NCBI GenBank assembly: GCA_947494695.1
Contig: CANLWB010000001.1
Coordinates: 248,001 to 312,000 of the forward strand
Length of the DNA stretch: 64,000 bases
Origin: an uncultured Flavobacteriaceae bacterium
GTDB lineage: Bacteria > Bacteroidota > Bacteroidia > Flavobacteriales > Flavobacteriaceae
Direction of reading: 5' to 3'
Below are positions 1,255-2,473 of this stretch, one piece after another. Made by a program: the position numbers and the translations under genes. How positions within the stretch are numbered: position 1 is the first letter of the stretch; every line of letters begins with the position of its first letter. The notes beneath the pieces are model-generated. The model saw nothing but the letters and a program-made list of their open reading frames with translations, searched no databases and was not told the origin of the DNA.

Positions 1255-1590
1255 TTATTCGTTATCCGTATAAACGATATCGTTTGCAGCAATGCTTAAT
1301 TGTATGTTTTTAATAATGAGATCTATAGGTGTAGCATGTCTATGGCTCATATAGTGTGCGGGAAGGGTATTAAAAAAAGCATCGAATTCTGTGGACAACA
1401 GGGCGTCTGTTATCGTGTTATAGGTATGTTCTGCATAGATAATTCCTATAATGGTTAATCCGGTTTTGCAGTGTGTTCTAACCTGTTTCTTAAGATCCGT
1501 TTTGTCTATAAGTACGATGAGCAATGCCAATTTAACATAGTAAGACAGTGTCGTATTTTGAGCTGGCTGTGTGGTTTTGGTTTGTAGCAT
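1255..1590 (-). CDS. Small hypothetical protein (111 aa)
   Basis: Begins MLQTKTTQPAQNTTLSYYV. No domain is recognised. Residues about 16-30 form a hydrophobic stretch (YYVKLALLIVLIDK); the rest is mixed, with no cysteine pair, lipobox or repeats. It lies between the two structured-RNA candidates, in the same orientation as RNA B, whose U-rich end is about 150 bases upstream of this start. An AT-rich leader precedes the ATG, as usual in this organism, but no exact promoter box was found. It may be a real accessory gene or a chance open frame; the score reflects that doubt. Confidence 0.35.
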   Translation of the reverse strand: MLQTKTTQPAQNTTLSYYVKLALLIVLIDKTDLKKQVRTHCKTGLTIIGIIYAEHTYNTITDALLSTEFDAFFNTLPAHYMSHRHATPIDLIIKNIQLSIAANDIVYTDNE

Positions 1591-1741: not shown

Positions 1742-1897
1742 GAAAAACAAAAAGGGTCTGCAACGATAAGAAACCTGCACTGGGGATCGTGAGCTGGTTT
1801 ACTTATCGTCTCCTTGCAAAAATGACCTGTTTTCTATTTGGAGACTCTTAGCGATAGCTTCAAATATTTTATACGAAGAATCGCAAACATATATAAT
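1742..1897 (-). ncRNA. Candidate structured RNA B (four-helix junction with U-rich 3' end)
   Basis: Read on the minus strand, 1888 to 1756 folds into a closed cloverleaf-like shape. The closing helix is GTTTGC (1888-1883) with GCAGAC (1761-1756). Hairpin 1 is GCGAT-T-CTTC with GAAG-CT-ATCGC (1884-1851). Hairpin 2 is GTCTCC with GGAGAC (1845-1808). Hairpin 3 is GATAAG-T-AAACC with GGTTT-C-TTATC (1807-1765). The 3' side runs into CCCTTTTTGTTTTT (1756-1743), a terminator-like U-tract. An exact TAnnTTTG promoter lies at 1903-1910. Helices, promoter and U-tract all agree on the minus strand. I do not recognise a known RNA family. It could be an independent small RNA or a leader of the 111-residue ORF downstream. 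Confidence 0.5.
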
Positions 1898-1902
1898 TAT
1901 AA

Positions 1903-1910
1903 CAAATGTA
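1903..1910 (-). promoter_or_regulatory. -7 promoter box TACATTTG for RNA B
   Basis: The reverse strand reads TACATTTG (exact TAnnTTTG), preceded by TTTTAC. The tracrRNA promoter at 2466-2473 has the same box with ATTTAC before it and T after it. No clear TTG at -33. The predicted start is near 1897. Confidence 0.5.
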
Positions 1911-1936: not shown

Positions 1937-1946
1937 GAACGCGTTC
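1937..1946. promoter_or_regulatory. Perfect 10-bp palindrome GAACGCGTTC upstream of the HTH gene
   Basis: GAACGCGTTC lies 31 bases before the start of the small HTH protein and 27 bases upstream of the RNA B promoter, in the divergent space between them. It overlaps a smaller palindrome, CGATCG (1933-1938 region). A regulator site is plausible but untested. Confidence 0.3.
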
Positions 1947-1976: not shown

Positions 1977-2231
1977 ATGGCCCAAATAAACTACATAATT
2001 TGCGCATATATTTACAGGAGTTGGATTGAGGAATATAAATCTCAACGTGCTTTTGCTCTAGATCATAATATTGAGGAAAGTATTGTACGTAAGATTAAAA
2101 AGACTGCAAAGCAAAAGGATAAAATGGATTACAATATCCCGGTTAAAACGCTCATGAAAATCTGCGAATCCCGCGACATCAAACTATCAGACTTTTTTAA
2201 AGACGTTGAGGCCTGGAGCCAGTCATTTTGA
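1977..2231 (+). CDS. Small HTH (XRE-like) DNA-binding protein
   Basis: 84 residues. The middle reads QRAFALDHNIEESIVRKIKK and the end NIPVKTLMKICESRDIKLSDFF, the spacing of a lambda-repressor/XRE-type helix-turn-helix: a wHTH-like recognition segment followed by the I-P-xx-T-L-x-K-I-C helix and a short linker. Proteins of this shape are common small regulators in flavobacteria. It sits alone between structured RNA B and the tracrRNA, transcribed away from RNA B and convergent with the tracrRNA. It stops with TGA. Its target is unknown; the GAACGCGTTC palindrome 31 bases upstream would suit autoregulation (inference). Confidence 0.65.
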   Translation: MAQINYIICAYIYRSWIEEYKSQRAFALDHNIEESIVRKIKKTAKQKDKMDYNIPVKTLMKICESRDIKLSDFFKDVEAWSQSF

Positions 2232-2369: not shown

Positions 2370-2460
2370 AATAGAAAGTCCCACCGAGGCGGGACTAAAG
2401 ACTTTTGTCTACGGCATATAGCCTTATTGTAATAAGATTAAGATTTAGAATATTTTTCTA
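2370..2460 (-). ncRNA. tracrRNA of the type II-C CRISPR-Cas9 system
   Basis: The minus strand carries an anti-repeat. TTCTAAATCTTAATC (2450-2436) is perfectly complementary to 15 bases of the CRISPR repeat. After a small internal bulge, TACAAT (2431-2426) pairs with the repeat's 5' GTTGTA (one G-U). Downstream come a GGC/GCC nexus hairpin (2423-2413), an AGAC/GTCT hairpin with an AAAA loop (2410-2399), and a strong terminator stem AGTCCC/GGGACT (2396-2377) followed by TTTCTAT. A TACATTTG promoter at 2466-2473 predicts a start at about 2460, giving an RNA of about 90 nt. It pairs with pre-crRNA for RNase III processing and Cas9 loading (family knowledge). It is transcribed divergently from cas9. 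Confidence 0.92.
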
Positions 2461-2465
2461 TGTCA

Positions 2466-2473
2466 CAAATGTA
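2466..2473 (-). promoter_or_regulatory. -7 promoter box TACATTTG of the tracrRNA
   Basis: Exact TAnnTTTG on the minus strand, with a TTTG 16 bases further upstream (2493-2490), somewhat closer than the usual -33 spacing. It places the tracrRNA start right at the beginning of the anti-repeat. Confidence 0.65.

What the first reader, a model, noticed from the sequence alone, without database searches (positions are those of the whole stretch)
1742..1910. A strongly folded, unassigned RNA with its own promoter beside the CRISPR locus
On the minus strand three hairpins and a closing helix (GTTTGC/GCAGAC, GCGAT-CTTC/GAAG-ATCGC, GTCTCC/GGAGAC, GATAAG-AAACC/GGTTT-TTATC) tile almost the whole of 1756-1888. 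They are followed by a U-rich tail and preceded by an exact TACATTTG promoter. So many perfect helices in this order, framed by start and stop signals on the same strand, are unlikely by chance. I cannot match it to a named family. It may be an undescribed small RNA or a leader-type element for the 111-residue ORF.
Basis: partly seen in the sequence, partly recalled or inferred. Interest (0 to 1): 0.75.

Follow-up and report, generated by a model that had tools for sequence, protein, structure and literature searches.

The report
Diverged copy of two-state leader RNA
The folded RNA beside this CRISPR locus is a diverged copy of an apparently uncatalogued RNA family scattered across the phylum Bacteroidota, which looks like an on/off switch in front of genes such as outer-membrane transporters, and in some species it carries the DNA address read by an RNA-guided transcription system.

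Summary
Minus-strand 1742-1896 belongs to an RNA family with no match in Rfam 15, found in 12 of 12 Flavivirga genomes, 58 of 299 family genomes and 41 of 296 sampled across the phylum. Covariation is strong (187 two-sided cells against 49.5 shuffled) and includes a pseudoknot. One strand can pair upstream (rod) or downstream (terminator hairpin plus U-run); both are conserved, so I read it as a two-state attenuator or orphan-riboswitch-like leader. Usual order: divergent XRE regulator, RNA, then SusC/TonB receptor, ECF sigma with dCas12f, or in Flavivirga a 110-aa protein (the window's 111-aa ORF). A promoter box is common upstream of the RNA, not between RNA and gene. The window copy lost the terminator strand; its rod runs into the U-tail. 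In 8 of 12 dCas12f genomes the guide matches the switching strand at 14 or more of 16 positions: the element contains the likely address of RNA-guided transcription. Ligand and transcripts are untested. CRISPR proximity looks incidental.

The parts
1742..1896 (-). Diverged copy of the leader RNA (5' end estimated from the promoter box; 3' end at the U-rich tail)
   Evidence: R1 model 79 bits, E 1.5e-14; positions; start estimated, not mapped
1903..1910 (-). Promoter -7 box TACATTTG
   Evidence: a TAnnTTnG box lies in the 40 nt before the RNA in 106 of 144 family copies, 15 of 144 after shuffling
1937..1946 (.). Short palindrome GAACGCGTTC, possible operator of the divergent regulator
   Evidence: 64 of 144 copies exceed the 95th percentile of shuffles; this one scores below the family mean; function inferred
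1977..2231 (+). 84-aa XRE/Cro-C1-like regulator ORF, divergent from the RNA
   Evidence: ORF; HTH_26 14.6 bits, below its cut-off of 22; an XRE-type ORF is in this position in 94 of 119 loci
1851..1884 (-). Helix P1 (GCGATTCTTC / GAAGCTATCGC)
   Evidence: covariation
1808..1845 (-). Pseudoknot helix P2 (GTCTCC 1840-1845 / GGAGAC 1808-1813)
   Evidence: two pairs with changes on both sides
1755..1830 (-). Rod: P6 (ACAGGTC 1824-1830 / GACC 1755-1758), P4 (TTGCAA 1814-1819 / GTTGCA 1759-1764), P3 (1796-1807 / 1765-1775)
   Evidence: -23.5 kcal/mol, z -3.9
1742..1754 (-). U-rich tail directly after the rod; the family's terminator strand is missing here
1255..1590 (-). 111-aa protein of the B family, the downstream gene of the cassette; seen only in Flavivirga in the samples searched
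   Evidence: 2 of 149 family genomes, both Flavivirga; no TAnnTTnG box between RNA and ORF

Best explanation
It is a cis-acting, two-state leader RNA (transcription attenuator or orphan-riboswitch-like). A promoter next to a divergent XRE regulator starts the transcript. In state 1 the middle strand GGCGUGGGCUCUCUUAUC pairs upstream and the pseudoknotted rod forms (read-through). In state 2 it pairs downstream with GAUAAGUUGAGUUCCACGCC to make a terminator hairpin in front of a U-run (stop). The downstream gene is expressed by read-through. What tips the balance is unknown. In genomes with dCas12f-sigmaE, the guide RNA mostly carries the same middle-strand sequence, so the complex should bind the DNA of the switch and start transcription past it. 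Shown by sequence: family, structure, both pairings, gene order, guide-target match. Inferred: termination, read-through, bypass, the role of XRE. The window copy keeps the rod but lost the downstream strand and the target, so it should terminate constitutively.
For: Covariation on 49 copies: 97.7% of 2055 cells paired, 187 two-sided cells against 49.5 shuffled, 0 of 500 (structure derived from the same alignment). Terminator state: 98.1% of 987 cells, 24 two-sided against 6.6; column pair 142/174 alone is CG 21, UA 16, UG 7, other 3. In 101 further copies the apical pairs are kept in 100-101, the terminator pairs in 89-101; phylum-distant copies keep both with different sequence. 4 to 7 U in the last 8 columns in 49 of 49; terminator hairpin mean -31.4 kcal/mol, mean z -5.4. 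TAnnTTTG between RNA and gene: 0 of 57 for genes up to 140 aa (expected 5.8), 8 of 89 for genes of 200 aa or more (expected 15.8); in the 60 nt upstream of the RNA 33 of 57 and 67 of 89. In divergent copies the first ORF of 30 or more codons starts 33-70 nt after the RNA in 19 of 29. Guide match 14-16 of 16 in 8 of 12 dCas12f genomes. GGCGTGGGCT occurs 103 times inside the RNA elements, 4 times right after a guide-RNA scaffold and 0 times elsewhere in 909 kb, both strands.
Against: No transcript, termination or ligand was measured. Genes downstream of the divergent subfamily are functionally mixed (proteases, EGF-like lipoproteins, RibD-like), unlike most metabolite riboswitches. Large downstream genes start 92-1392 nt after the RNA (median 445), and several of 14 SusC loci have a small ORF and further hairpins in that gap. 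P4 is paired in only 87.7% of cells. Most two-sided support for the terminator comes from one column pair. Eleven of 12 Flavivirga genomes lack this dCas12f, so its guide cannot explain the family. Guides match only partly in G193 and G041 and not in G305 and G149; in six further dCas12f loci, mostly Chryseobacterium, the guide agrees with the usual middle strand only over its first 8-11 nt. The window copy itself lacks the switch, so the mechanism rests on relatives.
Confidence: 0.68

Rival explanations
1. A trans-acting small RNA: the terminator simply ends it, and it regulates distant targets, like paralogous sRNAs of Bacteroides.
For: Own promoter box and terminator-like end; up to 11 matches per genome; SusC-type neighbours recall FopS sRNAs, which repress SusC translation (PMC11697453, passages).
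Against: A same-strand downstream gene in 103 of 119 loci, SusC/TonB in 70; no promoter enrichment between RNA and gene; gene start 33-70 nt after the RNA in 19 of 29 divergent copies; two exclusive pairings conserved.
Confidence: 0.2
2. Only a DNA landing site for dCas12f-sigmaE; the apparent RNA structure is a by-product.
For: The guide equals the middle strand in most dCas12f genomes; all 11 dCas12f genomes carry the element, against 58 of 299 (P 6e-9 if the two samples are the same).
Against: Helices far from the target covary (V1: 7 of 7 pairs); 11 of 12 Flavivirga genomes lack this dCas12f, and so do 47 of the 58 element-bearing family genomes if the samples agree.
Confidence: 0.05
3. 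A folded recombination or mobility site (attC-like) carried with cargo genes.
For: Patchy distribution; some copies near genes that look mobile by eye; one copy on a plasmid.
Against: Order XRE-RNA-gene, U-runs and promoter boxes fit transcription; copies are mostly scattered, with only a few pairs 0.5-5 kb apart. A shared recombinase was not systematically sought.
Confidence: 0.04

Closest known systems
Transcription-attenuating riboswitches and leader attenuators (general class)
   Same: Pseudoknotted conserved domain, exclusive antiterminator and terminator pairings, U-run, downstream gene
   Different: No known ligand; usually paired with a divergent XRE regulator; mixed downstream genes; no Rfam 15 match
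dCas12f-sigmaE RNA-guided transcription (PDB 9n9c, 9n9m, 9n9o, 9n9q seen as table rows; the preprint is recalled, not read)
   Same: Its operon follows this RNA in several loci and its guide mostly matches the RNA's middle strand
   Different: The RNA lacks the guide-RNA scaffold and a 3' guide; it is the presumed target region and is more widespread than dCas12f (58 against 11 of 299)
FopS/GibS paralogous sRNAs of Bacteroides (PMC11697453, passages)
   Same: Multicopy RNAs linked to SusC-type transporters in Bacteroidota
   Different: FopS act in trans by base pairing to susC mRNAs; this RNA is a pseudoknotted element encoded upstream of the gene
Rfp RNAs of Flavobacterium psychrophilum (PMC9723704, passages)
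   Same: Structured RNAs of flavobacteria, many newly described
   Different: No homology was tested; Rfp sequences were not seen

Membership tests
Any Rfam 15 family | Score above the family's gathering threshold | tested here: not met
   0 matches in the window; only sub-threshold noise at 1600-2560; in 14 loci one unrelated group II intron; in 8 divergent loci one unrelated sub-threshold match
Riboswitch | Conserved domain plus exclusive terminator/antiterminator | tested here: met
   For the family by covariation. For the window copy: not met, the downstream strand is absent
Riboswitch | Specific ligand binding changes expression | not testable with these tools
   Needs probing and reporter assays
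dCas12f guide RNA | GAGGGUGCUUGUACACCC-type scaffold followed by a 3' guide | tested here: not met
   That scaffold is a separate RNA downstream of dCas12f; pattern found in 12 of 13 genomes searched, not in the window's genome
Target of dCas12f-sigmaE | Match to the genome's guide behind a 5' G | tested here: met
   For the family in 8 of 12 dCas12f genomes at 14-16 of 16, partial in 2, none in 2. The window has no GGCGTGGGCT and its genome has no such dCas12f. The 5' G rule is recalled
CRISPR tracrRNA | Anti-repeat pairing with the CRISPR repeat | tested here: not met
   The clear repeat-like stretch is at 2420-2450, outside this RNA; 1817-1836 shows only a 20-nt, 80% inverted match to one repeat copy
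FopS sRNAs | R1 seed and trans pairing to susC mRNA | not tested
   Seed sequence not compared

The most novel reading that the evidence does not exclude
A phylum-wide attenuator RNA defines a regulon, and dCas12f-sigmaE evolved a guide copied from the attenuator's own switching strand, so that RNA-guided transcription starts beyond the terminator and overrides it at many members at once, including its own operon.
Probability: 0.45. Interest if true: 0.88.

Novelty: new variant of a known kind. Interest (0 to 1): 0.77.

Why it matters
It adds a well-supported, apparently uncatalogued leader-RNA family with an open trigger, linked to SusC/TonB uptake systems. It also offers an explanation of what a natural RNA-guided transcription system is often aimed at: the DNA of an attenuator shared by many operons. 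Both parts can be tested directly with reporters.

Tried and rejected
tracrRNA: rejected, the anti-repeat is elsewhere. Rfam families: none fits. Guide RNA with a guide matching nearby DNA: 175 copies searched for exact 12-mers shared with their flanks, 25 scattered matches and no consistent position. Integron-like arrays: not seen; a few copies lie in pairs. Phage carriage: an exact pattern found nothing in viral contigs and one query found nothing in phage records. FecR for the 365-aa protein: my first label for that cluster, was wrong; it is nuclease-dead Cas12f. B protein: helical model (mean pLDDT 81), no convincing fold (best E 3), no significant PDB sequence match (best E 0.63), no PADLOC hit. 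MAFFT alignment A3 was in poor register and not used for counts.

Rows dropped and limits: A1 holds 49 of 56 matches; six incomplete copies and the window copy were left out. A2 used 100 chosen sources, not all held, and is fitted to model R1, whose structure includes the rod and apical hairpin but not P2 or the terminator. Matches per genome include the divergent subfamily and pieces of interrupted copies. Some places were fetched twice under two names, so the counts are not free of duplicates; its shuffles, like those, keep only base composition. A3 left out L276 and L277. One search took, per genome, the best match over its guides and over two offsets.

Full report
What is there. Folding energy is better than shuffled on both strands, so it does not identify the strand. 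A DNA search of 99 genomes gave strong matches (E below 1e-7) in the own genome, in 11 of 11 other members of the genus and in 5 further genomes; the many weaker ones are mostly short and chance-like. I aligned 49 complete copies.

Structure. RNAalifold and explicit pair counts give P1, a rod made of V1, P6, P4 and P3, and an apical hairpin; a crossing helix P2 makes a pseudoknot. All 7 V1 pairs and all 5 P4 pairs show changes on both sides, though P4 is paired in 87.7% of cells. The middle strand (alignment columns 122-142) pairs upstream in this state. It can instead pair with a downstream strand, giving a long hairpin directly in front of a U-run; that hairpin is 98.1% paired with 24 two-sided cells against 6.6 shuffled, of which 16 fall on column pair 142/174. 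In 101 further copies the apical pairs are kept in 100-101 and the terminator pairs in 89-101. In distant copies the apical and terminator strands change together. The 49 terminator hairpins average -31.4 kcal/mol, z -5.4, with 4-7 U in the last 8 columns.

Window copy. It aligns from P1 to P6' but lacks V1' and the downstream strand. P3 is lengthened (AAACC/GGTTT), the apical CGTGGGC is lost, and the rod runs into CTTTTTGTTTTTC. I infer a locked, constitutively terminating copy. The genome has two intact copies and one very weak one.

Distribution. All 12 genomes of the genus with 1-11 matches each, 58 of 299 family genomes, 45 of 196 order genomes and 32 of 296 phylum genomes with model R1; 41 of 296 with the broader model R2. 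Other genera come from record titles. One plasmid copy, none found in phage or viral collections with one query and one exact pattern.

Neighbours. Of 119 loci, 94 have an XRE-type ORF divergent from the RNA; 19 have no ORF called there, 13 of them with less than 420 nt of upstream DNA; 6 have another ORF. The first same-strand gene is SusC/TonB in 70, B in 13, an ECF sigma or the protein next to it in 13, other in 7, none in reach in 16. The SusC and sigma labels rest on sequence clustering and one representative each in Pfam. B was found in 2 of 149 family genomes, both of this genus. A box TAnnTTTG is no more frequent than chance between RNA and gene and frequent upstream of the RNA. A palindrome often lies next to the promoter. 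In 29 divergent copies, mostly without XRE, the gene follows within 33-70 nt in 19, and a further pairing with a hairpin by the start codon is visible by eye.

RNA-guided transcription. The 365-aa protein after the sigma factor matches nuclease-deactivated Cas12f of PDB 9n9c at E 1e-194, and the sigma matches RpoE of 9n9q. Downstream of dCas12f lies a conserved guide-RNA scaffold followed in most loci by GCGTGGGCTCTCTTAT or a variant. That sequence is the middle strand of the leader RNA. Per genome, the match is at least 14 of 16 in 8 of 12, partial in G193 and G041, absent in G305 and G149. In G193 a variant guide fits a variant copy over 9 nt. In six further named loci, mostly Chryseobacterium, the guide shares only its first 8-11 nt with the usual middle strand. 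GGCGTGGGCT occurs 103 times in the RNA elements, 4 times after guide-RNA scaffolds and never elsewhere in the 909 kb of those 119 loci, where 1.7 are expected. All 11 dCas12f genomes of 299 carry the RNA; the P value of 6e-9 assumes that the two samples are the same. That such complexes bind DNA behind a 5' G and start transcription at a fixed distance is recalled from a 2025 preprint that I did not read here. The target and the rest of the hairpin span 65-71 nt, so a start inside or after the hairpin would bypass it; this is inference.

Literature. Core motif strings are in no relevant paper of the library (four unrelated hits). Searches, seen as listings, showed no description of this RNA; bioRxiv and most subscription papers are not held. 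I read passages only of PMC11697453, PMC9723704 and PMC8040213; the last reports HTH-XRE as a frequent neighbour of candidate structured RNAs in the human microbiome, and I could not compare its motifs.

Verdict. A real and, as far as these searches show, uncatalogued leader-RNA family; the window holds a diverged copy. The two-state mechanism is well supported by sequence, untested by experiment.

Noticed in passing
window 2371-2468 (-): Candidate tracrRNA of the neighbouring Cas9: repeat-like stretch 2420-2450, terminator hairpin 2377-2396; Rfam tracrRNA only 16.9 bits, below its threshold of 70.
   Followed up: partly
L037, L071, L279, L280 (left halves); L286, L288, L289 (right halves): A 331-aa IS110-like transposase gene (family judged by eye, not tested) interrupts the RNA at the same point of the apical loop in at least four Flavivirga copies.
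   Followed up: partly
L130, L132-L134, L137, L138, L141-L143, L146, L147: Between RNA and SusC there is a conserved small ORF ending in LFKKKPKGPI or similar, and further hairpins, seen by eye in the alignment.
   Followed up: no
L270, L275, L278, L281, L303-L305, L308, L309: In the divergent subfamily the 3' strand can pair with the loop of a hairpin just before the start codon (e.g. CAGUUCC/GGAACUG, CAAACCC/GGGUUUG; by eye).
   Followed up: partly
G193:C11:9368-9852, G149:C1:56282-56637: Tandem arrays of dCas12f guide RNAs with different guides; the G149 guides do not match the leader RNA and their targets are unknown.
   Followed up: partly
L269 5976-6151 (Rhizosphaericola mali plasmid pB3-10): A copy of the RNA on a 30-kb mobilizable plasmid, in front of a hypothetical protein.
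   Followed up: no
L169, L198, L264: These copies are followed by 93-109 aa proteins that occupy the place of B; relation to B not established.
   Followed up: no
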